From: Arenicola marina
Lineage: Eukaryota; Annelida; Polychaeta; Arenicolidae
Direction: 5' to 3'
DNA: 64,000 bases
Assembly: GCA_964019135.1 (NCBI GenBank)
Contig: OZ025249.1
Coordinates: 36,779,759-36,843,758 of the forward strand
Shown here: positions 7,480-64,000 of the stretch, piece by piece
Layout of the letters: every line of letters starts with the position of its first letter
How positions within the stretch are numbered: the first letter of the stretch is position 1
Notes under the pieces: generated by a model
Database searches by the model: none
What the model was told of the DNA's origin: nothing
Seen by the model: only the letters and a program-made list of their open reading frames with translations
Program-made: the position numbers and the translations under genes

Positions 7480-8260
7480 CGACCCACGGTCAGCTCACCT
7501 CACTATGATGTGCGATATGTAACTCACGATCAACTCGCCTCACTATCCTGTGCATCATGGAATTTACGATCAACTCACCTCACTGTTGTGCGTCATGTAA
7601 CTCACAATCAACTCACGATCAATTCATCTCATTATGATGTGCGTCATGTAATTTACGATGAGCTCACCTCATGACGTGGGCTTCATGTAACTCAAGATCA
7701 ACTCACCTCACTACGTTGTGCGTCATGTAACTCACGATCAGCTCACCTCACCATGCTGTGCGTCATAGAACTCACGATCAGCTCACCTCACCATGCTGTG
7801 CGTCATAGAACTCACGATGAGCTCACCTCACTATGCTGTGCGTCATGGAACTCACGATCAACTCACCTCACTATGCTTTGCGCCATGGAACTCACGATCA
7901 ACTCACCTCACTGTTGTGCGTCATGTAACTCACAATCAACTCACGATCAATTCATCTTACTATGATGTGCGTCATGTAATTTACGATGAGCTCACCTCAT
8001 GACGTGGGCTTCATGTAACTCAAGATCAACTCACCTCACTACGTTGTGCGTCATGTAACTCACGATCAGCTCACCTCACCATGCTGTGCGTCATGGAACT
8101 CACGATCAACTCACCTCACTATGCTGGGCGTCATGTAACTCACGATCAACTCACGCTAACTTTATCTCACTATGATGTGCTGCAGGTAACTCACGATCAA
8201 CTCACATCAATATAATGTGCGTCATGTAATTCACAATCAAGACACCTCACTACCATGACT
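7480..8260. repeat. 40-bp minisatellite with a 328-bp higher-order repeat
   Basis: About 20 units of the type actcacgatcaactcacctc, then actatgctgtgcgtcatgta, with variants. A block starting near 7581 recurs near 7909 with the same order of variants (shift 328 bp), so part of the array was duplicated as a multi-unit segment. Confidence 0.93.
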
Positions 8261-43101: not shown

Positions 43102-44910
43102 TACACACGTCTATTTGATTTGCAAATCCGATATAATTTTGAACCAGTTTCCGACGACTGAAAATGACGTCTGTGAGAGCCCAAAACGTCCGACTGCCCA
43201 AAACGGGCCAGGATCAGGATTTTGACACCTACAACTTAATGCACAGTTAGCTACAACTCGAGCATCCACGAATAAATATATAACAAGAACCATGACCAGA
43301 GTTTGTCCATGTCCTTAAGGTGATCCCGACCTCACATAATTATTGTTTTAATTGATAGATATACGGCGGAAGGGTGTGACAAGTTCAAAAGAGGGCAAAG
43401 AGGCCAATTAAGGCTGTAAAATACCGCTAACGCTTATTTTGTCCGCGCCTTGTTATGCACCGCCCCACACGTAAACTCCCCCTGCCCCCCCCCCCCCACC
43501 CCTTCGAGCTTCTCCTCGAGTGTTATTCGTACATTGCTATCTAAGAGATACAAAACTAGCCTGGTTTTATATCACCAGATTGTGAATGATTGAAACGTCA
43601 AATGTAACTGTTCGTTGGTTCTTAGCTATGTAGGACGTTTTGGGTAGTCGGACGTTTTGGGCGCTCACAGACGTCGTTTTGACCAGTTTACGACGAGTTT
43701 TGCCCACTGGGAGGCCCGAAAAGATATGACTATATATTGTGAGACCTACAAGAGAACTAGTCAAGGCATAAGCCCCCCCCCCCCTCTACCACTCCCCTCA
43801 CCCACACAATTTCACACTGTATGCGCCATTGCGAAGTTTTATGTCAACGCTGAGGCGCGGAGAGAGCACAGGCTTCAAAGCCGACAATCCGTACACATCC
43901 CACTGCAAGCGGCACTAAGATACGGATTTACGACGGTCGTTTGCGGCACTCGTTCTTACCTCACTCGTTAGCCACGAGGCACTATCGAGCGGAGGTGGTG
44001 CTGTGGAAGAGCCTAGTGGCTTTCAAGGGTATCTTGGCAACAGGAGAAGAGAGATCAACAACAAACATGTCCTGTTTGAAAGAAACCTTCAGTTGGTATG
44101 TTCTACTCACAGACGTCTTATTTTGGGTAAGTAAGCAGATACCATATTTGTTTCTTTATCGCATGTTGAAATGTTGATATGTATTTGTAGGCCTACGCTC
44201 TATATATTATCTATATACTATGCCGCTGCATGCAAGAGCACATTGGGACCAGCAGCCGCCTTGAACCTATATCCAACCGAACCACTGCATAGGCTAAATG
44301 GTCCGCCTCGGATGTATCAACATTGTCGCTCATAGATGTGTCAACGCCATCGCGTGTGTCAACCCTACCGCATAATATCGCTTTCGGGTGCTTATCCCGC
44401 ATGGTGACCATGTCTGCGGCGGGCTACCTGGCTTGGTGCCAACAGTAATGATATTTTTCCCAACGCATTATCGCCCGAACTGTCATCAAAAACAAACAAA
44501 TCCCGAACTGTCTCGCGTCCACAACTTCCCATCAGTAGCAAATTTTGTCCACTGAAGGTACGTTAAATGACGAACAACGGGCGGGAAACAGCCCCTTTTT
44601 TACTCAATCAGCCCCCTTTTTGGAGTATTCTGTACTGGATGCACAATAATTGCACAGAAAGTGTTTTAACAACCTTAACACTTATGTCCCGGTACTCAGT
44701 AGCTCCCGGTCTCAATTTATGTCAATATACTTATCGATATTATTTCTGCCCAATGTCTACTTTCTGCCTGCTACTATTCATAGGCATTCTCAGTCATAGG
44801 CATAAACATGACGTTGCAAAATCGTCACATTCCTAACACAGTAAAAAAACATTGTTATTGTTTTGTTTTTCAAATTAATGGGACAGGTAAATTCCTGCGA
44901 GTGTGGGTCA
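43102..44910. other. Unassigned sequence
   Basis: C-runs at 43485-43497 and 43772-43783. No exon recognised. Confidence 0.5.
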
Positions 44911-45019
44911 CTGAGACTGCGTGAGTGCATGAGCCGCACTGAGACTGCGTGAGTGCATGAGCCGCACTGAGACTGCGTGAGTGCATGAGCCGCACTGAGA
45001 CTGCGTGAGTGCATGAGCC
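44911..45019. repeat. 28-bp minisatellite, 3.9 units
   Basis: ctgagactgcgtgagtgcat plus gagccgca repeats exactly at 44911, 44939, 44967 and 44995. It leaves all minus-strand frames open locally, which creates a spurious 139-codon frame. Confidence 0.95.
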
Positions 45020-47250: not shown

Positions 47251-47890
47251 TGTCGGATGAATGCGGTATTTGGCTCAAATGTCCCGTTATACGCGCTGTT
47301 TAGCCCGAATTGTCCCGTATACGCGCTGTTTATCCAAAATTGCCCCCTATATGCGCTGTTCAGCTCAAATCGCCCGTTATATTCGCTATTTAGCATAAAT
47401 TGAGCGTTACATGCGCTTTTTAACCAACAATTACCCGCTACATGCGCAATTTAGGCCAAATTGCTCGTTATGCGCACTGTTTAACCGAAATTGCCAGTTA
47501 GATGCCCAGTGTACCTAAAATTCCCTGTTATACTAGCTATTTAGCCCAAATTGTCAGTTATGTGCGATATTTAGCTCAAATTGCCTGCTGAAAGCTCTAC
47601 TTAGGTCGCCAAATCTTTATTTTGCCAACAGAAAGCTCAATTTTGTAAACAGAAAGCTCTATTTTCTCAACAGAAGGCTCTATTTGGAATAAGTTGCTAT
47701 CCCACGCCGATATCTATGCTGAATTGCTCTCTGAAGGTTATATTTGGCCCCGCGAAAGCACTATTTACCCCAGATTGTACCTTAAAAGCTCTATTTGGGC
47801 CAAATTGTATGTGTAATGGCCTACTTTGCCAAATTTACTCGCTAAAACTCTATTTTGCCCGCTGAAACCTCTATTTGATCCAAATTGTCA
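47251..47890. repeat. Expanded 31-bp tandem array at the end of copy F
   Basis: ttatacgcgctgtttagccc plus gaattgtcccg repeats about 20 times with growing drift. The homologous place in copy C has only about four units. Confidence 0.85.
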
Positions 47891-48500
47891 ACTGAAGGCA
47901 CTAATTGACCCCTCAGATCCAGATTTGATCCATCAGATCCAGATTTGACCTCTCAGATCCAGATTGACCTCTCAGATCCAGATTGACCCCTCAGATCCCG
48001 ATTTGACCTCTCAGATCTAGATTGACCCCTCAGATCCAGATTTGACCCTTCAGATCCAGATTTGATCCCTCAGATCCAGATTTGATCTCTCAGATCCAGA
48101 TTTGACCTCTCAGATCCAGATTTAATCCCTCAGATCCAGATTTGACCTCAGATCCAGATTGACCCCTCAGATCAAGATTTGACAATCAGATCCAGATTCA
48201 ATCTGTCAGATCAAGATTGGACAACTAGGATGCAGATTGACCCGTCGCATCTGTATTTGACCATCAGATCCCGATTCGACCCTGGTGATCCTGATTGAAC
48301 ATTGCTAATCCAGATTGGACCCAACGAAACCAGCTTTGACCCGTCGTATACCAATGTATCCCACGGATCCCGTTTCGAACCGTCGAATTCGACCCTGCAC
48401 ATCTCGATTTGTCCCACACAACCCTAATCGACTCATCAGATCCCTATTTGTCCCACGAATCCTGATTAGAGCTCCCGCATCCCTATTCGAAGACCCTGCG
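47891..48500. repeat. 20-bp cagatccagatttgacc minisatellite
   Basis: About 17 clear units (47915-48235), then a drifting tail to about 48500 that still keeps gat-cc and ttgac-cc spacing. Confidence 0.9.
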
Positions 48501-50175: not shown

Positions 50176-53100
50176 GTGAGATTTGAGGCTTCATAGCCAT
50201 AGCCTAGGCCTACTAAATTTATAAGCTAAGGTTATGCATAAATGTCATTATCGAGATTATATGGAAGCCAGGAAGACACGACCTCTCATCAGACTGATGC
50301 AGTAATGTCTGATGATAAGCCTAAATACGTCTCCGTGATCTGGGAACACGACCCCCCATGCCCCCCCCCCCCCCTTGGGAAATTATTCTTTGTATTGGGC
50401 GACTTGGGGCTAGGCCCGGGGGATACTTAATACATTGCTGTGGGCAGGGGAGGGGGGAGCCGTAAGCCCCCCCCCTTGTTCACCGCCAAAATCCGCGCGG
50501 TCGGGGCCTTTTACGGTCAAAATCTGCTCGGAAGCCCGGGAAGGGGTGTTTTTTTCGCGGAAACTCTCTCTATGAAGGAACATTTGCAGAGCGCCTCCCC
50601 CAGCCCGTTGCAAGTTTTCAAATATCCGTTCTATAGGGGTATCTAGTTCATCATAAATGGCCGCTCCATAGCGGTATCTCTTTCATCATAAATGTCCGCT
50701 TATAGGGGTATCTTTTTCGTCATAAATGTCCGCTCCCTCAGGCATCGATGGGCACCCGCGGAATCCCCACACCAGCTTCATATAACAGTACCCCCGCCCC
50801 CCTCCCGGGGGCTAGGCCAGGGGGGGGAGGGGCGAGCTAGGCGATGAACATCGTCTGTTTGGAATACCGCTAGAACATGCAGCATCATTGAACATGATAG
50901 CGCCCTTCTACCTCTAGACTTTTTAACGCGTGCCAGGTACAATCATAATCACAATCGTAATTAAAGTTGCATATCGAGCTCTTTCCCGCCAAAACAAAGC
51001 CCATGCGAAATTTATATCAACATTTGCAGAAAACTCGATTGTTTCATTCTACAAATTCAGAAACCTGATAAATATCGTCGTTTTCTTTGCCTTTACCACT
51101 AAAATGAAAACTAGTGGTAAATTGATATCACGGAGAGACACTATTTGGCAGCCGGGCATGAGTAGATTATAGACAAAAGAAATCTTGAAAGTGTTGAATG
51201 GTTCAAGGACTGATTCTTATTTGTATTTTGACCTCTTTAGTTTTGGCGGGAAAGAGCATGACAAACCAGGTGGGAATCTGGCATTAAAGCTAGGAGGGAG
51301 GGGTCTGCGGGTAAATTTGAAATAATCCCAGTCAGGACCAATGTAAATGGTAGTTTCCTCAGTTTGCAAAGCTATTTACTTATTAACAAATTCGTCATCA
51401 TTCAAATGTTTCGATGTGAGAAAGATTGGACGAGTTGGCGGTGTTACGCGCAGAACCCCTTACACGTGTAAGTTGGCCAGTACGCGGTCAGATGAGCCAA
51501 ATGGCAAAAGGTCCGTCGTATGCCCCCCCCCCCTCCCCCCGATAGTCTCTTCCCACTTATCCATCGCCTCGACACCCATGGCACGATATAGCCTTACAGG
51601 CTGAAAGTGCCGTTAAACCCCAATCAAATCAACCTCGACACCCAAAGTAGGCACAATTTCTCCCCACCTAAGCCCAAGACAAGCTTAACATCTACTTACG
51701 TATCACTGTGGTCATGTCACCCTCACTTTTTGTCCTTGTTTTCGGAATTCAGGTCAAATTATGTTTTTGTCTTAAAAAGATCATAACCCACTCCCAGTTT
51801 GGTATCAACTTGAGCTACGTGTAATCTACGTGTGCATTATGATTACGGCTCTAATGGCAGCTAATACGATTGATGGCAAAACAAAACAAAGTTATCAGGT
51901 TATATAACTGAGACCTGGTGACGGGCTGCAACAGCGGGCGGGCGAGGTGGGAAATATCGCCCCGCTAGTTCATTATGCATTTAAAGCAATATATTCCGTA
52001 ATTTTTTGTATTACCAACCTCTTCCCCATGTCAAATAAGTATATTCTGTCTTGAATTTGAATCCTGAAAGCATGTGGGCTCTCCGGAGAGAAGCATTTTG
52101 GTCAACGGAGCAGAAGTTGGTGGCCGGCTCAATATCCCTACGCGCCTGTTCGCAGTTCGCTATTTTGTGTGTGATGTCGACCGCGGCTCGCTATCACGTC
52201 CGCGCGCGATAAAAATAAACCGCGCAGTGTTATGTTGAAATTGTTGTTTTACAGACTCTCAGAGATGTAAAACATGTATGCATCATAATTTTGAGATACC
52301 TTTAGTCTTGATTCTAATATGTAAACAATCTAAAATGGCGCATGTAAGTATATTGCTTTAATCACGACTTTAAGGCCTTCGGAAATCCCGGACGGATTGC
52401 TACGGTGACGACCTCTACCCCGCCATGGACCAAATCTTGCGGATCTACGGCTCAAAAGAACGCCAGCGAGACGAGAGAAACGCCCAAGTATCTGGGACGT
52501 CTGCATATAGTGGATGGGGAAGATGTGAACGTCCTGCCAGCCACAGCGGAATGCCCTGTCTGGTCTTGTAATGAATGGGACCCCCTGGAGGAAGTCATCG
52601 TGGGTCGTGTAGAAGGCGCCACCGTGCCCAGGCTTACAGCTGAGGTCAAGGTCAGTGCACCCATTGTAGTACATAAATATATATTACTCAATTTCCTCAA
52701 ATCAATGTACAGGTATAGATTAAAAGAAAATTAGCGTTTAACTGTGCAAGATATATAATTTAAACATGATAATAGTACTCAGGTGCAAAGTCTGCAGTAG
52801 TCATTAAGCTGGCGTCGTTAACATGATTAACGGTTTTTTTTTTCATGTAGGCCAATACATCAGAGAAATACTGGGACTTTTACGATCGGCGAGCGGGTCG
52901 TTCGTTCCCAAAACAACATCTGTTGAAGGCCCATGCTGAGATTGAGGAGCTGTGCAATGTTCTCCGCAGAGAGGGCGTCACAGTCAAACGACCAGATCCC
53001 ATAGACTTCTCGAAAACATATGAAACGCCAGACTTCAAATCAGCAGGTAGGTCGCGAGATTCATGCTTAACCAAAGACAATAGACATTTATTAAAGGGAA

Positions 53101-56100
53101 CTTACCCAAGCGAGTATGTTGTACGAGTGTTGTAAGATTACTATAGATTTGGAAGCGCATTTTTCCAATTTGAACGTTTGAACGGTTCTTTGTACCTTCT
53201 TCTGCCAATCATTGCTTTACCTTTGAAATTATGACTTCGATAAATTCGATGACAATACGTTAACATGGACCAAACACTGCTCACTAGGTTTGTACGCCGC
53301 CATGTCATAATGTCTTAGCCTGTCTCCCTCTTTGTTCACTAGGTCTGTACGCCGCCATGCCGAGGGACATTCTCATCGTAGTCGGTGAGGAGATAATAAT
53401 GTCATAGCCTGCCTCCATCTTTGTTCACTAGGTCTGTACGCCACCATGCCGAGGGACATCCTCATCGTGGTCGGTGAGGAGATCATAATGTCATAGCCTG
53501 CCTCCCTCTTTGTTCACTAGGTCTGTACGCCGCCATGCCGAGAGACATCCTCATCGTGGTCGGTGAGAAGATCATAATGTCATAGCTTGCCTCCCTCTTT
53601 GTTCACTAGGTCTGTACGCCGCCATGCCGAAGGACATCCTCATCGTGGTCGGTGAGGAGATCATAATGTCATAGCCTGCCTCCCTCTTTGTTCACTAGGT
53701 CTGTACGCCGCCATGCCGAGGGACATCCTCATCGTGGTCGGTGAGGAGATCATAATGTCATAGCCTGCCTCCCTCTTTGTTCACTAGGTCTGTACGCCGC
53801 CATGCCGAGGGACATCCTCATCGTAGTCGGTGAGGAGATAATAATGTCATAGCCTGCCTCCCTCTTTGTTCACTAGGTCTGTACGCCGCCATGCCGAGGG
53901 ACATCCTCATCGTGGTCGGTGAGAAGATCATAATGTCATAGCCTGCCTCCCTCTTTGTTCACTAGGTCTGTACGCCGCCATGCCGAGGGACATCCTCATC
54001 GTGGTCGGTGAGGAGATCATAATGTCATAGCCTGCCTCCCTCTTTGTTCACTAGGTCTGTACGCCGCCATGCCGAGGGACATCCTCATCGTGGTCGGTGA
54101 GGAGATCATAATGTCATAGCCTGCCTCCCTCTTTGTTCACTAGGTCTGTACGCCGCCATGCCGAGGGACATCCTCATCGTGGTCGGTGAGAAGATCATAA
54201 TGTCATAGCCTGCCTCCCTCTTTGTTCACTAGGTCTGTACGCCGCCATGCCGAGGGACATCCTCATCGTGGTCGGTGAGGAGATCATAATGTCATAGCCT
54301 GCCTCCCTCTTTGTTCACTAGGTCTGTACGCCGCCATGCCGAGAGACATCCTCATCGTGGTCGGTGAGAAGATCATAATGTCATAGCTTGCCTCCCTCTT
54401 TGTTCACTAGGTCTGTACGCCGCCATGCCGAAGGACATCCTCATCGTGGTCGGTGAGGAGATCATAATGTCATAGCCTGCCTCCCTCTTTGTTCACTAGG
54501 TCTGTACGCCGCCATGCCGAGGGACATTCTCATCGTAGTCGGTGAGGAGATAATAATGTCATAGCCTGCCTCCCTCTTTGTTCACTAGGTCTGTACGCCG
54601 CCATGCCGAGGGACATCCTCATCGTGGTCGGTGAGGAGATCATAATGTCATAGCCTGCCTCCCTCTTTGTTCACTAGGTCTGTACGCCGCCATGCCGAGG
54701 GACATCCTCATCGTGGTCGGTGAGAAGATCATAATGTCATAGCTTGCCTCCCTCTTTGTTCACTAGGTCTGTACGCCGCCATGCCGAAGGACATCCTCAT
54801 CGTGGTCGGTGAGGAGATCATAATGTCATAGCCTGCCTCCCTCTTTGTTCACTAGGTCTGTACGCCGCCATGCCGAGGGACATTCTCATCGTAGTCGGTG
54901 AGGAGATCATAATGTCATAGCCTGCCTCCCTCTTTGTTCACTAGGTCTGTACGCCGCCATGCCGAGGGACATTCTCATCGTGGTCGGTGAGGAGATCATA
55001 ATGTCATAGCCTGCCTCCCTCTTTGTTCACTAGGTCTGTACGTCGCCATGCCGAGGGACATCCTCATCGTGGTCGGTGAGGAGATCATAATGTCATAGCC
55101 TGCCTCCCTCTTTGTTCACTAGGTCTGTACGCCGCCATGCCGAGAGACATCCTCATCGTGGTCGGCGAGAAGATCATAATGTCATAGCCTGCCTCCCTCT
55201 TTGTTCACTAGGTCTGTACGCCGCCATGCCGAAGGACATTCTCATCGTAGTCGGTGAGGAGATCATAATGTCATAGCCTGCCTCCCTCTTTGTTCACTAG
55301 GTCTGTACGCCGCCATGCCGAGGGACATCCTCATCGTGGTCGGTGAGGAGATCATAATGTCATAGCCTGCCTCCCTCTTTGTTCACTAGGTCTGTACGCC
55401 GCCATGCCGAAGGACATCCTCATCGTGGTCGGTGAGGAGATCATAATGTCATAGCCTGCCTCCCTCTTTGTTCACTAGGTCTGTACGCCGCCATGCCGAA
55501 GGACATCCTCATCGTGGTCGGTGAGGAAATCATAATGTCATAGCCTGCCTCCCTCTTTGTTCACTAGGTCTGTACGCCGCCATGCCGAAGGACATCCTCA
55601 TCGTGGTCGGTGAGGAGATCATAATGTCATAGCCTGCCTCCCTCTTTGTTCACTAGGTCTGTACGCCGCCATGCCGCGGGACATCCTCATCGTGGTCGGT
55701 GAGAAGATCATAATGTCATAGCCTGCCTCCCTCTTTGTTCACTAGGTCTGTACGCCGCCATGCCGAGAGACATCCTCATCGTGGTCGGCGAGAAGATCAT
55801 AATGTCATAGCCTGCCTCCCTCTTTGTTCACTAGGTCTGTACGCCGCCATGCCGAGAGACATCCTCATCGTGGTCGGTGAGAAGATCATAATGTCATAGC
55901 CTGCCTCCCTCTTTGTTCACTAGGTCTGTACGCCGCCATGCCGAAGGACATCCTCATCGTGGTCGGTGAGGAGATCATAATGTCATAGCCTGCCTCCCTC
56001 TTTGTTCACTAGGTCTGTACGCCGCCATGCCGAGGGACATCCTCATCGTGGTCGGTGAGAAGATCATAATGTCATAGCCTGCCTCCCTCTTTGTTCACTA

Positions 56101-59100
56101 GGTCTGTACGCCGCCATGCCGAGAGACATCCTCATCGTGGTCGGTGAGAAGATCATAATGTCATAGCCTGCCTCCCTCTTTGTTCACTAGGTCTGTACGC
56201 CGCCATGCCGAGGGACATCCTCATCGTGGTCGGTGAGAAGATCATAATGTCATAGCCTGCCTCCCTCTTTGTTCACTAGGTCTGTACGCCGCCATGCCGA
56301 GAGACATCCTCATCGTGGTCGGCGAGAAGATCATAATGTCATAGCCTGCCTCCCTCTTTGTTCACTAGGTCTGTACGCCGCCATGCCGAGAGACATCCTC
56401 ATCGTGGTCGGTGAGGAGATCATAATGTCATAGCCTGCCTCCATCTTTGTTCACTAGGTCTGTACGCCGCCATGCCGAAGGACATCCTAATCGTGGTCGG
56501 TGAGGAGATAATAATGTCATAGCCTGCCTCCCTCTTTGTTCACTAGGTCTGTACGCCGCCATGCCGAGAGACATCCTCATCGTGGTCGGTGAGAAGATCA
56601 TAATGTCATAGCCTGCCTCCCTCTTTGTTCACTAGGTCTGTACGCCGCCATGCCGAAGGACATCCTCATCGTGGTCGGTGAGGAGATCATAATGTCTTAG
56701 CCTGCCTCCCTCTTTGTTCACTTGGTCTGTACGCCGCCATGCCGAAGGACATCCTCATCGTGGTCGGTGAGGAGATCATAATGTCATAGCCTGCCTCCCT
56801 CTTTGTTCACTAGGTCTGTACGCCGCCATGCCGAGGGACATCCTCATCGTGGTCGGTGAGAAGATCATAATGTCATAGCCTGCCTCCCTCTTTGTTCACT
56901 AGGTCTGTACGCCGCCATGCCGAGGGACATCCTCATCGTGGTCGGTGAGGAGATCATAATGTCATAGCCTGCCTCCATCTTTGTTCACTAGGTCTGTACG
57001 CCGCCATGCCGAGGGACATCCTCATCGTGGTCGGTGAGGAGATCATAATGTCATAGCCTGCCTCCCTCTTTGTTCACTAGGTCTGTACGCCGCCATGCCG
57101 AGAGACATCCTCATCGTGGTCGGTGAGGAGATCATAATGTCATAGCCTGCCTCCCTCTTTGTTCACTAGGTCTGTACGCCGCCATGCCGAAGGACATCCT
57201 CATCGTGGTCGGTGAGGAGATAATAATGTCATAGCCTGCCTCCCTCTTTGTTCACTAGGTCTGTACGCCGCCATGCCGAGAGACATCCTCATCGTGGTCG
57301 GTGAGAAGATCATAATGTCATAGCCTGCCTCCCTCTTTGTTCACTAGGTCTGTACGCCGCCATGCCGAAGGACATCCTCATCGTGGTCGGTGAGGAGATC
57401 ATAATGTCATAGCCTGCCTCCCTCTTTGTTCACTAGGTCTGTACGCCGCCATGCCGAGAGACATCCTCATCGTGGTCGGTGAGAAGATCATAATGTCATA
57501 GCCTGCCTCCCTCTTTGTTCACTAGGTCTGTACGCCGCCATGCCGAAGGACATCCTCATCGTGGTCGGTGAGGAGATCATAATGTCATAGCCTGCCTCCA
57601 TCTTTGTTCACTAGGTCTGTACGCCGCCATGCCGAAGGACATCCTCATCGTGGTCGGTGAGGAGATCATAATGTCATAGCCTGCCTCCCTCTTTGTTCAC
57701 TAGGTCTGTACGCCGCCATGCCGAGGGACATCCTCATCGTGGTCGGTGAGAAGATCATAATGTCATAGCCTGCCTCCCTCTTTGTTCACTAGGTCTGTAC
57801 GCCGCCATGCCGAGGGACATCCTCATCGTGGTCGGTGAGGAGATCATAATGTCATAGCCTGCCTCCCTCTTTGTTCACTAGGTCTGTACGTCGCCATGCC
57901 GAGGGACATCCTCATCGTGGTCGGTGAGGAGATCAAAATGTCATAGCCTGTCTCCCTTTTTGTTCACTAGGTCTGTACGCCGCCATGCCGAGGGACATCC
58001 TCATCGTGGTTGGTGAGGAGATCAAAATGTCATAGCCTGCCTCCCTCTTTGTTCACTAGGTCTGTACGTCGCCATGCCGAGGGACATCCTCATCGTGGTC
58101 GGTGAGGAGATCATAATGTCATAGCCTGCCTCCCTCTTTGTTCACTAGGTCTGTACGCCGCCATGCCGAGGGACATCCTCATCGTGGTCGGTGAGGAGAT
58201 CATAATGTCATAGCCTGCCTCCCTCTTTGTTCACTAGGTCTGTACGCCGCCATGCCGAGGGACATCCTCATCGTGGTTGGTGAGGAGATCAAAATGTCAT
58301 AGCCTGCCTTCCTCTTTGTTCACTAGGTCTGTACGCCGCCATGCCGAGGGACATCCTCATCGTGGTCGGTGAGGAGATCATAATGTCATCGCATGCCTCC
58401 CTCTTTGTTCACTAGGTCTGTACGCCGCCATGCCGAGAGACATCCTCATCGTTGTCGATGAGGAGATCATAATGTCATCGCATGCCTCCCTCTTTGTTCA
58501 CTAGGTCTGTACGCCGCCATGCCGAGGGACATCCTCATCGTGGTCGGTGAGGAGATCATAATGTCATAGCATGCCTCCCTCTTTGTTCACTAGGTCTGTA
58601 CGCCGCCATGCCGAGGGACATCCTCATCGTGGTCGGTGAGGAGATCATAATGTCATAGCCTGCCTCCCTCTTTGTTCACTAGGTCTGTACGCCGCCATGC
58701 CGAGGGACATCCTCTTGGTGATCGGGGACGAGATTATCGAGGCTCCCATGGCTTGGCGATCACGGTTCTTCGAGTATCGAGCATACCGTCGTCTGATCAA
58801 GGACTACTTTCTGCAAGGAGCTACCTGGACTACAGCCCCTAAACCCCAAATGTCAGATCAACTCTATGATATGGTGAGTGGTAATGACATAAGTTGATAG
58901 TGATACTGTATTAACAGAGCTACACGATCAAGCCAGCTTGCAGCAAATAATGTTTCAAAAAAATATATATTTGGCTTCGGTACATTTGACAATAGCTCGT
59001 TCTCAGATAGCATGCTAACGTTATGTTAACGTTATATTTTGGTTTGCATGATTGATATATGGTCGCCGGTTAACTAACAACATTCCCGCAAACGTTAACT

Positions 59101-60395
59101 TAACGTTTGCAACAAAAGGTTGCATGATGACGAGATATCAACGTTAAACTAACGTCTCACGGTAAAACCTAGAGTCGCAGTAACAATAGATAGGCCTGTA
59201 TATTTATTAAAGCATCAAAGCAAAATAAATGAAAGATATCTTCGTCTAAAGCAGAAAAGAAACATATTACACAAGGTATTTCGGTAACATTTGCAATCCA
59301 ACATTTACAATATAAATGCCGGTCTGAATTACTCATGGGTGTGATAATTGTAACATTTTTATTTTCACCTTTGCCCGGCAATGGGAAGCCACATTATTTT
59401 TGTTATCGGATGTGGGTGAATGCGTTGACAAATATACTAGTCATATTATCCAGGTCTTCTCTTGCGCTCCAGAATTACCCGATGACGACCGCTTCAGACC
59501 GTCACGAGCTGGCGGCTCAAGGACGCTTCGTAACCACTGAGTTTGAACCCTGCTTTGACGCAGCCGATTTCATTCGCGCCGGCCGGGATATCTTCGGGCA
59601 GAGGAGTCAAGTAGGTACACGTGTTGCCCTGCCGTTAGCCATTTTTTTTGCACAGGGCTGCCATAGCTAGTATGTACGTCGATAACAACATTTTTGGCTG
59701 GCCTACTTGCGATTTTGATAATGTATGGAATAATACATTCTGAGAGTGATTATTTCACTATTATTACACAGAAGCAAGACTCTGGGTTGGTAAGTAGTAA
59801 TTCTTACATGTATTGTCAGGAGTCATTATAAAAGAGCTAAATGGTACAAGTTTGTAACATAACACCTCGCTCATCTGTGCAAAAGTTGCTACTATTCAGC
59901 AAGTACAGATCGATGTACGTAGCTGTGATTTAGCAATTACTTTGGTTTGGGATACACTTAATTGCCCCGATAGCCATTTCTTTCACAGGAATAATGACTC
60001 TTAAAGGGCTTGATATGCGGCATTGTAAGAAACAAAATATTTAAAAGTACTTTTCTTACAGTCGGTTTTAATCCGTTCCATCAATACGGTAACTGGATAT
60101 CTCTTATTTTATCTCTTATTTTATGGTTATTGTTTCGCGTTTCACCTAATTGCCACCGACTAGGTGACCAACCAGCTTGGCATTGAATGGCTGAGACGCC
60201 ACCTAGCCCCGAAGGGAATTCGGGTCCACACGCTAACGTTTCGAGATCCCAACCCGATGCACATTGACGCGACCTTCAACATCATTGGGCCGGGTTTGGT
60301 GCTGTCTAACCCTGACAGACCGTGTCACCAGGCAGACATGCTGGAGAAAGCGGGCTGGCGCATCGTGCAGCCGCCGCGACCTCTCGTCTCTGATG
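50110..60395 (+). CDS. GATM: Glycine amidinotransferase, mitochondrial (AGAT), six 5' exons; gene runs off the right edge
   Basis: The product transfers the amidino group of arginine to glycine, giving guanidinoacetate and ornithine. This is the first step of creatine synthesis, in mitochondria. Exons 50110-50175, 52375-52650, 52851-53046, 58683-58873, 59473-59610 and 60164-60395 join in frame (phases 0, 0, 1, 0, 0, then 1 at the end) to about 366 residues. The blocks [69 protein letters not shown] (here with R for the first K), [17 protein letters not shown] and [10 protein letters not shown] match vertebrate GATM almost residue for residue. The catalytic Asp (FDAAD, about residue 272) and His (PMHID, about 322) are present. 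The catalytic Cys exon lies outside the window. The N-terminus [18 protein letters not shown] resembles the human transit peptide start. Introns 3 and 6 carry large tandem arrays. Confidence 0.97.
50176..52374 (+). other. GATM intron 1
   Basis: Intron of about 2.2 kb with long C/G runs (50352-50375, 50453-50473, 50792-50830, 51522-51540), a three-unit 35-bp tandem repeat and a cgcgcgataaaaataaac patch at 52201-52220 that could be a cryptic TATA-like site. I see no exon in it. Confidence 0.7.
50631..50733. repeat. 35-bp tandem repeat, three units, GATM intron 1
   Basis: Three successive units share the pattern ataggggtatct, ttcatcataaatg, tccgct, at a spacing of about 35 bp. Confidence 0.8.
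52375..52650 (+). CDS. GATM: GATM exon 2
   Basis: This exon encodes the variable linker after the transit peptide and the first conserved block ([20 protein letters not shown], then [15 protein letters not shown]). The acceptor chosen is the AG at 52373-52374 (ctttaag), because it gives phase 0 and keeps the frame open. A rival acceptor at 52539-52540 (cctgccag) would give the wrong phase for exon 1. The start is therefore good but not certain. The donor is AAG followed by GTCAGT, a weaker than usual site. The GTG at 52405 in this frame is not a start codon. Confidence 0.9.
52851..53046 (+). CDS. GATM: GATM exon 3
   Basis: The exon starts after a T-rich tract and catgtag. It reads [20 protein letters not shown], then [40 protein letters not shown] and DFKSAG, matching the vertebrate block ANTYEKYWPFY...RRPDPIDW. 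It ends one base into a Gly codon (G, then gtaggt), that is in phase 1. The Gly codon is completed by GT at the start of exon 4, or equally by any monomer of the intron 3 array. Confidence 0.96.
53288..53342 (+). repeat. Shortened first monomer of the intron 3 array
   Basis: This 55-bp unit matches the 89-bp monomer but lacks 34 internal bases. It keeps gtttgtacgccgccatg and the ctctttgttcactag acceptor segment, and has more point differences than the others, as expected at an array edge. Confidence 0.9.
53343..58682 (+). repeat. 89-bp x 60 tandem array of exon-like monomers in GATM intron 3
   Basis: Exactly 60 units of 89 bp fill 5,340 bp (first unit at 53343, second at 53432, the real exon 4 at 58683). 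Each unit is the 5' end of exon 4 (GTCTGTACGCCGCCATGCCG and onward), then GGTGAGGAG, an in-frame stop (ATGTCATAG), and a pyrimidine-rich tail ending in ttgttcactag. Read as exon, the part between the AG acceptor and the GTGAG donor is 42 nt, phase 1 at both ends, coding [14 protein letters not shown]. The implied intron between units is 47 nt. Units differ at a few sites (AGG/AGA/AAG/CGG codon, GAG/AAG after the donor, ATC/ATA, CTT/CCT in the tail). No unit length change is needed to explain the total length. Confidence 0.97.
58683..58873 (+). CDS. GATM: GATM exon 4
   Basis: This is the only copy of the GTCTGTACGCC module that continues into the real protein: [20 protein letters not shown], then [43 protein letters not shown]. 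Its length is 191 nt, entering in phase 1 and leaving in phase 0 at ATG followed by GTGAGTGG. Where the array monomers carry GGTGAGGAG, this exon carries GGGGACGAG, so the internal donor is absent here. The acceptor (ctctttgttcactag) is identical to that of the 60 upstream monomers. Confidence 0.97.
58874..59472 (+). other. GATM intron 4
   Basis: AT-rich intron of 599 bp without exon or clear repeat. It has a run of aacgttaactt-like short palindromes at 59020-59150. Confidence 0.7.
59473..59610 (+). CDS. GATM: GATM exon 5 (catalytic Asp)
   Basis: Forty-six codons, phase 0 at both ends: [46 protein letters not shown]. It contains the catalytic Asp of the FDAAD motif; by alignment this is human Asp254. 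The acceptor is gcgctccag and the donor is CAA followed by gtaggt. Confidence 0.97.
59611..60163 (+). other. GATM intron 5
   Basis: AT-rich intron of 553 bp. I see nothing else in it. Confidence 0.7.
60164..60395 (+). CDS. GATM: GATM exon 6 (catalytic His)
   Basis: This exon encodes [52 protein letters not shown] and PPRPLVSD. The His in PNPMHID is the catalytic base (human His303 by alignment). There is one extra residue relative to human between HLAP and RVH. The exon ends at GATG followed by gtaggatc, in phase 1. The next exon, which should begin the equivalent of human HPLWMSS, is not in the window. Confidence 0.96.
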
Positions 60396-60556: not shown

Positions 60557-63500
60557 GAACGTGTTTTAACTGCCTCTATATATCACCCTCAGTGACTGTG
60601 TTTGACTTACCACTTCCTCCACCACCCTCAGTGGCTGTGTTTTACTACCGCTGCCTCCATCACCCTAAGTGACCGTGTTTTATTACCGCTGCCTCCACCA
60701 CCATCAGTGACTGTGTTTTACTACTACTTCCTCCATCACCCTCAGTGACTGTGTTTTACTACCGCTGCCTCCATCACCCTCAGTGACTGTGTTTTACTAC
60801 CGCTGCCTCCATCACCCTCAGTGACTGTGTTTGACTTACCACTTCCTCCATCACCCTCAGTGACTGTGTTTTACTACCGCTGCCTCCATCACCCTCAGTG
60901 ACTGTTTTACTACCGCTGCCTCCATCACCCTCAGTGACTGTGTTTTACTACCGCTGCCTCCATCACCCTCAGGGACTGTGTTTTACTACCGCTGCCTCCA
61001 CCACCCTCAGTGACTGTGTTTGACTTACCACTTCCTCCACCACCCTCAGTGACTGTGTTTTACTACCGCTGCCTCCATCACCCTCAGTGACCGTGTTTTA
61101 CTACCGCTGCCTCCACCACCCTCAGTGACTGTGTTTGACTTACCACTTCCTCCATCACCCTCAGTGACTGTGTTTGACTACTACTTCCTCCATCACCCTC
61201 AGTGACTGTGTTTTACTACCGCTGCCTCCATCACCCTCAGTGACCGTGTTTTACTACCGCTGCCTCCACCACCCTCAGTGACTGTGTTTTACTACCGCTG
61301 CCTCCATCACCCTCAGTGACCGTGTTTGACTACTACTTCCTCCATCACCCTCAGTGACTGTGTTTTACTACCGCTGCCTCCATCACCCTCAGTGACCGTG
61401 TTTTACTACCGCTGCCTCCATCACCCTCAGTGACTGTGTTTTACTACCGCTGCCTCCATCACCCTCAGTGACTGTGTTTTACTACCGCTGCCTCCATCAC
61501 CCTCAGTGACTGTGTTTTACTACCACTTCCTCCATCACCCTCAGTGACCGTGTTTTACTACCGCTGCTTCCACCACCCTCAGTGACCGTGTTTTACTACC
61601 GCTGCCTCCATCACCCTCAGTGACTGTGTTTTACTACCGCTGCCTCCATCACCCTCAGTGACTGTGTTTTACTACCGCTGCCTCCATCACCCTCAGTGAC
61701 TGTGTTTTACTACCACTTCCTCCATCACCCTCAGTGACTGTGTTTTACTACCGCTGCCTCCATCACCCTCAGTGACCGTGTTTTACTACCGCTGCCTCCA
61801 TCACCCTCAGTGACCGTGTTTTACTACCGCTGCCTCCATCACCCTCAGTGACTGTGTTTTACTACCGCTGCCTCCATCACCCTCAGGGACTGTGTTTTAC
61901 TACCGCTGCCTCCACCACCCTCAGTGACTGTGTTTGACTTACCACTTCCTCCACCACCCTCAGTGACTGTGTTTTACTACCGCTGCCTCCATCACCCTCA
62001 GTGACCGTGTTTTACTACCGCTGCCTCCACCACCCTCAGTGACTGTGTTTGACTTACCACTTCCTCCATCACCCTCAGTGACTGTGTTTGACTACTACTT
62101 CCTCCATCACCCTCAGTGACTGTGTTTTACTACCGCTGCCTCCATCACCCTCAGTGACCGTGTTTTACTACCGCTGCCTCCACCACCCTCAGTGACTGTG
62201 TTTTACTACCGCTGCCTCCATCACCCTCAGTGACCGTGTTTGACTACTACTTCCTCCATCCCCCTCAGTGACTGTGTTTTACTACCGCTGCCTCCATCAC
62301 CCTCAGTGACCGTGTTTTACTACCGCTGCCTCCATCACCCTCAGTGACTGTGTTTTACTACCGCTGCCTCCATCACCCTCAGTGACTGTGTTTTACTACC
62401 GCTGCCTCCATCACCCTCAGTGACTGTGTTTTACTACCACTTCCTCCATCACCCTCAGTGACCGTGTTTTACTACCGCTGCCTCCACCACCCTCAGTGAC
62501 TGTGTTTGACTTACCACTTCCTCCATCACCCTCAGTGACTGCGTTTGACTACTACTTCCTCCATCACCCTCAGTGACTGTGTTTTACTACCGCTGCCTCC
62601 ATCACCCTCTGTGACCGTGTTTTACTACCGCTGCCTCCACCACCCTCAGTGACTGTGTTTTACTACCGCTGCCTCCATCACCCTCAGTGACCGTGTTTGA
62701 CTACTACTTCCTCCATCACCCTCAGTGACTGTGTTTTACTACCGCTGCCTCCATCACCCTCAGTGACCGTGTTTTACTACCGCTGCCTCCATCACCCTCA
62801 GTGACTGTGTTTTACTACCGCTGCCTCCATCACCCTCAGTGACTGTGTTTTACTACCGCTGCCTCCATCACCCTCAGTGACTGTGTTTTACTACCGCTGC
62901 TTCCACCACCCTCAGTGACCGTGTTTTACTACCGCTGCCTCCATCACCCTCAGTGACTGTGTTTTACTACCGCTGCCTCCATCACCCTCAGTGACTGTGT
63001 TTTACTACCGCTGCCTCCATCACCCTCAGTGACTGTGTTTTACTACCACTTCCTCCATCACCCTCAGTGACTGTGTTTTACTACCGCTGCCTCCATCACC
63101 CTCAGTGACCGTGTTTTACTACCGCTGCCTCCATCACCCTCAGTGACTGTGTTTTACTACCGCTGCCTCCACCACCCTCAGTGACTGTGTTTTACTACCG
63201 CTGCCTCCATCACCCTCAGTGACTGTGTTTTACTACTACTTCCTGTATCACCCTCAGTGACTGTGTTTGACTTACCACTTCCTCCACCACCCTCAGTGAC
63301 TGTGTTTGACTTACCACTTCCTCCACCACCCTCAGTGACTGTGTTTTACTACCGCTGCCTCCATCACCCTCAGTGACTGTGTTTTACTACCGCTGCCTCC
63401 ACCACCCTCAGTGACTGTGTTTTACTACTACTTCCTCCATCACCCTCAGTGACTGTTTTACTACTACTTCCTCCATCGCCCTCAGTGACTGTGTTTTACT

Positions 63501-64000
63501 ACCGCTGCCTCCATCACCCTCAGTGACTGTGTTTGACTACTACTTCCTCCACCACCCTCAGTGACTGTGTTTGACTTACCACTTCCTCCATCACCCTCAG
63601 TGACTGTGTTTTACTACCGCTGCCTCCATCACCCTCAGTGACTTGTGTTTTACTACCGCTGCCTCCATCACCCTCAGTGACTGTGTTTTACTACCGCTGC
63701 TTCCATCACCCTCAGTGACTGTGTTTGACTTACCACTTCCTCCACCACCCTCAGTGACTGTGTTTGACTTACCACTTCCTCCATCACCCTCAGTGACTGT
63801 GTTTTACTACCGCTGCCTCCATCACCCTCAGTGACTGTGTTTGACTTACCACTTCCTCCATCACCCTCAGTGACTGTGTTTTACTACCGCTGCCTCCATC
63901 ACCCTCAGTGACTGTGTTTGACTTACCACTTCCTCCACCACCCTCAGTGACTGTGTTTGACTTACCACTTCCTCCACCACCCTCAGTGACTGTGTTTTAC
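60557..64000 (+). repeat. 38-39 bp minisatellite in GATM intron 6, continuing past the window
   Basis: About 89 units. The main forms are tgactgtgttttactaccgc plus tgcctccatcaccctcag (38 bp) and a variant with gacttaccacttcc (39 bp). Every unit ends in a pyrimidine-rich CAG that looks like a 3' splice site. Longer blocks of mixed variants recur (for example around 60960-61500 and 61880-62430), showing a higher-order structure. The right end is not seen. Confidence 0.97.

What the first reader, a model, noticed from the sequence alone, without database searches (positions are those of the whole stretch)
53343..58682. Sixty tandem potential micro-exons inside GATM intron 3
Seen: 60 units of exactly 89 bp, each with a pyrimidine tract and cactag acceptor, 42 nt of exon 4 coding sequence, and a GTGAG donor. 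The 42 nt enters and leaves in phase 1 and exon 3 ends in phase 1, so any number of units could be spliced in without a frame change. Each would add [14 protein letters not shown]. If a unit is entered but its donor is not used, a stop (TAG) follows after about 21 codons. Inference: the array may yield length-variant or null GATM transcripts, or be a large decoy field the spliceosome must skip. The 47-nt implied intron is very short for an animal, which argues against efficient splicing between neighbouring units.
Basis: partly seen in the sequence, partly recalled or inferred. Interest (0 to 1): 0.9.

Follow-up and report, generated by a model that had tools for sequence, protein, structure and literature searches.

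The report
Sixty splice-site copies in a gene
A creatine-synthesis gene carries sixty near-identical tandem copies of one of its own intron-exon borders; such "mirage" repeats were reported before in lancelet genes, but this one is very long and most copies look like small spliceable exons, so it is a natural test of how cells pick the right splice site.

Summary
Sixty exact 89-bp units (53343-58682, 98.2% identical to consensus), plus one truncated copy (53289-53342), lie in intron 3 of a glycine amidinotransferase (GATM/AGAT) gene and run without a break into exon 4. The unit is the end of intron 3 plus the start of exon 4. Of 60 units, 55 are complete acceptor / 42-nt open frame / GTGAG cassettes. 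Two details need correcting: only the first 32 nt are identical to exon 4, and 19 of 60 units do not encode [14 protein letters not shown] (15 have PKD where PRD is invariant in 49 of 49 bacterial relatives).

This anatomy is published for amphioxus as "mirages", minisatellites spanning intron/exon boundaries, reported not to disturb splicing (PMC3087553, PMC3902484). Direct exon 3-exon 4 joining gives a gap-free match to human AGAT. I therefore judge it a mirage removed with intron 3. Micro-exon inclusion is not excluded: in potato, a tandem duplication across an intron/exon border did create a spliced intron of the same geometry (PMC4974935). The bolder reading is an array of recursive-splicing (RS) exons, but the sequence scores lean against it. 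No RNA data could be reached, and the species is not established.

The parts
52851..53046 (+).
   Evidence: human AGAT alignment; donor PWM 10.05 (recalled matrix)
53289..53342 (+). truncated first copy of the unit (54 bp; internal deletion), preceded by a CACTAG with a poor pyrimidine tract
53343..58682 (+). tandem array, 60 units x 89 bp, each = first about 56-60 nt of an exon-4-like sequence followed by the last about 29 nt of intron 3
53699..53740 (+). example potential 42-nt micro-exon in unit 5 (consensus unit), [14 protein letters not shown], phase 1 to phase 1
53741..53787 (+). example implied 47-nt intron in unit 5, GTGAGG...CACTAG
58683..58873 (+). genuine GATM exon 4; first 32 nt identical to the unit consensus; donor ATG|GTGAGT
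59473..59610 (+). GATM exon 5
60164..60395 (+). GATM exon 6

Best explanation
This is a boundary-spanning minisatellite of the kind called a 'mirage' in amphioxus. A tandem duplication covering the end of intron 3 (pyrimidine tract and CACTAG) and the start of exon 4 was amplified to 60 copies and kept alike by unequal exchange. The true exon 4 is its last, partial unit. Most likely the whole array leaves with intron 3 and exon 3 is joined to the last acceptor, because only that acceptor is followed by the rest of exon 4 (191 nt) and a strong donor. The decoys are followed by a 42-nt segment with a weaker donor, and the next acceptor is 47 nt on. Shown: the anatomy, the phase, the open exons 3-6, the edge-biased rare variants. 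Inferred: the duplication history, normal splicing, exon definition as the reason for the choice, and that the host is a lancelet.
For: Array and its junction with exon 4. Joining exons 3 and 4 directly gives a protein that matches human AGAT over residues 58-352 at E 1.5e-152, gap-free across the junction. Rare variants concentrate at the array edges (18 of 30 occurrences in 11 of 60 units, binomial p 5e-7; edges chosen after seeing the data and shared variants not independent), as expected for homogenisation by exchange. PMC3087553 (section 16 read whole) describes the same anatomy in amphioxus globin BflGb6: 3' end of an intron plus 5' part of an exon, 6 and 3 repeat units in two haplotypes, many with AG/GT signals, and says that Adh3 data and globin RT-PCR suggest no interference with splicing. 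PMC3902484 (one passage) adds PGBD5 and cites Adh and troponin C. Donor scores: exon 4 10.23 against the commonest unit donor 7.46 (recalled matrix).
Against: No RNA data. The tract before the unit is identical to exon 4's in 53 of 60 and its pyrimidine fraction is equal in 56 of 60, slightly lower in 4; the acceptor AG is intact before 59 of 60 units. So nothing local explains why the last one should win. The commonest unit donor TCG|GTGAGG (PWM 7.46, U1 -8.8) scores above the gene's own exon 5 and exon 6 donors (6.71 and 6.17) and is at the 97.7th percentile of 4125 + strand GT sites in the window. Predicted RNA accessibility does not separate decoys from real sites. Variants in the coding part lean synonymous (7 of 10, p 0.05), which could hint at use. 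Potato RdRp shows that such a duplication can be spliced (PMC4974935).
Confidence: 0.8

Rival explanations
1. Some units are truly spliced in as 42-nt micro-exons through 47-nt introns, giving GATM proteins longer by multiples of 14 residues. (The rivals overlap with each other and with the best explanation, so the odds need not add to one.)
For: 55 of 60 complete cassettes; frame kept; donors good; potato RdRp gained an intron by a duplication across an intron/exon border, with the donor from the exonic part of the upstream copy and the acceptor from the downstream copy (PMC4974935, abstract and section 5); 43-56-nt human introns are spliced (PMC4463651, passages); synonymous-leaning variation, p 0.025-0.05 uncorrected.
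Against: 15 of 60 units encode PKD although PRD is invariant in 49 of 49 bacterial relatives; human AGAT has no insertion here, nor do 47 of 49 bacterial relatives, and the other 2 have a single extra residue; the synonymous lean is small, uncorrected for multiple testing, and could come from exchange with the constrained exon 4.
Confidence: 0.1
2. The array is a decoy field that costs or tunes expression: a fraction of transcripts enter a unit, hit the stop and are degraded, so copy number sets GATM output.
For: Stop after 21 codons in 58 of 60 units, 29 in 2 of 60; 59 of 60 intact unit acceptors precede the real one.
Against: Published mirages are reported not to give aberrant mRNAs; no expression data here.
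Confidence: 0.1
3. Recursive splicing: nearly every unit acceptor is directly followed by GT, so a wrong splice to a unit rebuilds a donor CAG|GTCTGT at the end of exon 3, which can splice again downstream and finally give the same clean exon 3-exon 4 join. Each unit has the layout of an RS-exon.
For: AG|GT at 59 of 60 unit starts; rebuilt donor PWM 5.76, U1 -6.4, near the gene's own exon 6 donor (6.17, U1 -7.7); most Drosophila RS sites have a further 5' splice site less than 100 nt downstream (PMC6224609, passages), as here.
Against: Efficient RS of cryptic RS-exons needs an RS donor that outcompetes the downstream one (PMC6224609); here the commonest unit donor is stronger (7.46 against 5.76). 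GT is simply how exon 4 begins, and exon 6 also begins GT.
Confidence: 0.07
4. Assembly artefact that inflated a short repeat.
For: Long near-identical array, no reads available.
Against: 30 distinct unit types and a graded 3' edge are not what copying one unit would give.
Confidence: 0.04

Closest known systems
Amphioxus 'mirages' (Adh3, globins BflGb6 and BflGb9, troponin C, PGBD5)
   Same: Tandem repeats that span an intron/exon boundary; in BflGb6 the 3' intron end plus 5' exon part, many with AG/GT signals (PMC3087553; PMC3902484).
   Different: 60 copies of 89 bp here against 6 and 3 copies of 150-160 bp in BflGb6 and 10-72-bp units in Adh3 (copy number in Adh3 not seen); 55 of 60 units also carry an internal GTGAG donor that makes a frame-neutral cassette, which I could not compare with the published arrays. 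Species of this window not established.
Intron gain by tandem duplication across an intron/exon border (potato RdRp)
   Same: Donor supplied by the exonic part of the upstream copy, acceptor by the intronic part of the downstream copy (PMC4974935).
   Different: One extra copy and splicing supported by RNA-seq there; sixty copies and no RNA evidence here.
RS-exons of recursive splicing
   Same: Acceptor immediately followed by GT, with a second donor within 100 nt (PMC6224609, passages).
   Different: Rebuilt donor is weaker than the downstream donor; sixty in a row; use untested.
[quoted passage not shown]
   Same: A minisatellite made of splice sites; known to me only by the title of Turri et al. 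1995 in a reference list and by recall.
   Different: Donor sites, not acceptors.

Membership tests
Mirage (boundary-spanning minisatellite) | tandem repeat whose unit covers an intron/exon boundary of the host gene | tested here: met
   unit = intron 3 end + exon 4 start, continuous with exon 4
Mirage (boundary-spanning minisatellite) | concerted evolution with less homogenised edges | tested here: inconclusive
   98.2% identity and rare variants 18 of 30 in 11 edge units favour it, but edges were chosen post hoc, shared variants are not independent, and the distance correlation is not significant (149 of 2000 permutations)
Mirage (boundary-spanning minisatellite) | found in a cephalochordate gene | not testable with these tools
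   no genome held for the window; no animal genome collection among the tools
Mirage (boundary-spanning minisatellite) | normal splicing of the host mRNA | not testable with these tools
   no RNA data
Mirage (boundary-spanning minisatellite) | length instability between alleles or somatic cells | not testable with these tools
   one sequence only
RS-exon | rebuilt donor strong enough to outcompete the downstream donor | tested here: not met
   5.76 against 7.46 bits, recalled PWM; a score comparison, not an assay
RS-exon | acceptor followed by GT and a second donor downstream | tested here: met
   AG|GT at 59 of 60 unit starts; 56 of 60 have GTGAG 42 nt on
Functional micro-exon | conserved peptide under selection | tested here: inconclusive
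   synonymous lean p 0.025-0.05 against PKD in 15 of 60 where PRD is 49 of 49

The most novel reading that the evidence does not exclude
The array works as a row of sixty RS-exon-like units: whichever decoy acceptor is taken first, the junction rebuilds a donor (CAG|GTCTGT) and can be spliced again until exon 4 is reached, leaving no scar. This would explain why boundary-spanning minisatellites are tolerated when the exon begins with GT, with occasional 14-residue insertions as leakage.
Probability: 0.07. Interest if true: 0.85.

Novelty: new member of a known kind. Interest (0 to 1): 0.5.

Why it matters
One transcript offers 61 nearly identical acceptors, the real one last. That is a natural experiment on first-come versus exon-defined splice-site choice, on whether recursive splicing repairs wrong choices, and on intron gain by tandem duplication. 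It also places a mutable repeat in direct homology with an invariant motif (PRD) of the enzyme, so exchange could carry changes into exon 4 (inference).

Tried and rejected
Hairpin hiding the decoys: a hand-picked 56-nt piece of unit 5 folds well (z -3.30), but the same piece of a variant unit less so (z -1.68), the whole unit not (z -0.44), the exon 4 counterpart moderately (z -1.14), and exon 4 in longer context worse than shuffles (z +1.28). Local accessibility (150-nt window) of unit donors, mean 0.29, lies inside the range of the five real donors (0.17-0.47). Pyrimidine-tract accessibility is about exon 4's (0.76 against 0.78), and around the AG it is 0.29 against exon 4's 0.38 (real acceptors 0.25-0.61). 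Rejected.

Higher-order repeats: 8 multi-unit runs against a shuffle mean of 6.2 and maximum of 18. No signal. Distance correlation between units not significant.

Branch site: the only yTnAy in the unit's intron part lies 4 nt from its end; weak TNA sites lie 27, 32, 35 and 43 nt upstream. Not discriminating, since exon 4's acceptor depends on the same sequence.

Selection test: naive binomial p 0.008 becomes 0.05 (nt 1-41) and 0.025 (nt 1-56) when the mutation spectrum is kept, among nine region-frame tests; the two wrong frames gave p 0.49-0.91 in those regions.

Polarising unit against exon 4: both I/V and L/I forms at the differing sites occur among 49 bacterial relatives (position 11: L 32, M 8, I 7; position 13: V 22, I 20), so undecided.

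GATM paralog in the window: none found by tblastn of the joined protein. Pfam gave no family for the 352-aa GATM piece and NCBIfam one hit far below its cut-off; identity rests on PDB. Rfam and tRNA scans were empty. Pfam on 10 of the 51 ORFs of at least 90 aa gave one hit below its cut-off.
Full report
OBSERVATION. The window holds 60 units of exactly 89 bp at 53343-58682, mean identity to consensus 98.2%, 30 distinct types. A truncated 54-bp copy precedes them (53289-53342). The last unit runs without a break into exon 4 at 58683. The acceptor CACTAG precedes 60 of 61 unit or exon 4 starts (unit 39 is the exception), the donor GTGAG is present in 56 of 60 units, and 55 of 60 are complete cassettes. 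The 42 nt is open in 60 of 60 units; 41 encode [14 protein letters not shown], 15 [14 protein letters not shown], 3 [14 protein letters not shown], 1 [14 protein letters not shown]. Entering a unit without using its donor gives a stop after 21 codons in 58 of 60 and after 29 in 2 of 60.

HOST GENE. Exon pieces at 52351-52650 (5' end not determined), 52851-53046, 58683-58873, 59473-59610 and 60164-60395 join to a 352-residue open frame. It matches human L-arginine:glycine amidinotransferase at E 1.5e-152 over residues 58-352, with no gap across the exon 3-4 join. Pfam gave no hit. Intron 3 is 5636 nt; 242 nt of it precede the first copy.

WHAT THE UNIT IS. Nt 1-32 are identical to exon 4. Nt 33-56 are homologous with 7 differences (5 at third codon positions), then similarity ends. 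The rest is intron 3's end. So the GTGAG donor is exonic sequence, two bases away from exon 4's own GGGAC. The unit reads ILIVVG like human AGAT, and exon 4 ILLVIG; both residues at the differing sites occur among 49 bacterial relatives, so the direction of change is open.

HOW IT VARIES. Rare variants lie mostly in the edge units (18 of 30 occurrences in units 1-2 and 52-60; edges chosen after inspection), which fits homogenisation by unequal exchange; the correlation of difference with distance was not significant (149 of 2000 permutations). Variants in the coding part are synonymous in 7 of 10 (expected 4.1, p 0.05), and in 10 of 16 over nt 1-56 (expected 5.9, p 0.025), uncorrected over nine tests. 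Against coding use, 15 of 60 units change PRD, invariant in 49 of 49 relatives; none of the 49 has an insertion longer than one residue in this motif. Exchange with the constrained exon 4 would also produce a synonymous lean.

SPLICE SIGNALS. With a recalled vertebrate donor matrix, 56 of 60 unit donors score 7.0-7.6 and the other 4 score 0.1 or less; exon 2 scores 8.42, exon 3 10.05, exon 4 10.23, exon 5 6.71, exon 6 6.17. The pyrimidine tract is identical to exon 4's before 53 of 60 units. The junction CAG|GTCTGT that would be rebuilt at exon 3 after a splice to a unit scores 5.76. RNA accessibility does not separate decoys from real sites. Sequence alone therefore does not say why the last acceptor should be used; exon definition by exon 4's length and strong donor is my inference.

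LITERATURE. PMC3087553 (section 16 whole, other passages) describes 'mirages' in amphioxus and reports that Adh3 data and globin RT-PCR suggest no interference with splicing. PMC3902484 (one passage) lists PGBD5, Adh, troponin C. The founding Adh paper (Canestro 2002) is not held. PMC4974935 (abstract, section 5) shows a spliced intron of the same geometry in potato. PMC6224609 (passages) describes RS-exons. PMC4463651 (passages) documents 43-56-nt human introns. PMC2812944 (passages) reports novel introns where human internal tandem repeats fall at exon-intron boundaries; PMC2206037 (passages) was not informative. Searches for amphioxus with minisatellite/intron, with mirages, with tandem repeats/splice sites (20 of 27 papers listed), and for Branchiostoma with glycine amidinotransferase listed no paper whose title or abstract start, as shown, concerns such an array in GATM; I opened only the papers named here and PMC4526556 (one reference-list passage).

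VERDICT. Species, RNA products and allele length are untested. Its worth is as a test case: 61 near-identical acceptors, and 55 complete frame-neutral cassettes.

Noticed in passing
60582-64000: A second long array (38 bp, about 90 copies by TRF) fills the visible part of intron 6 from 60582 and runs off the window. Read by hand in phase with exon 6, a stretch of it gives DHPQ-stop, and one unit (60623) DHPQW, which by recall resembles the DHPLW that follows in human AGAT; but no AG stands directly before that stretch. It may be a second boundary-spanning array of the same gene; exon 7 lies outside the window.
   Followed up: partly
7485-8252; 47269-47583; 47905-48282; 44909-45019: Several further minisatellites upstream of the gene, with units of 40, 30, 20 and 28 bp.
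   Followed up: no
60164: Exon 6, like exon 4, begins with GT after TAG, so the exon 5-6 join might also rebuild a donor.
   Followed up: no
52351-60395: Pfam finds no family in the joined 352-aa GATM piece although PDB gives human AGAT at 1.5e-152.
   Followed up: no
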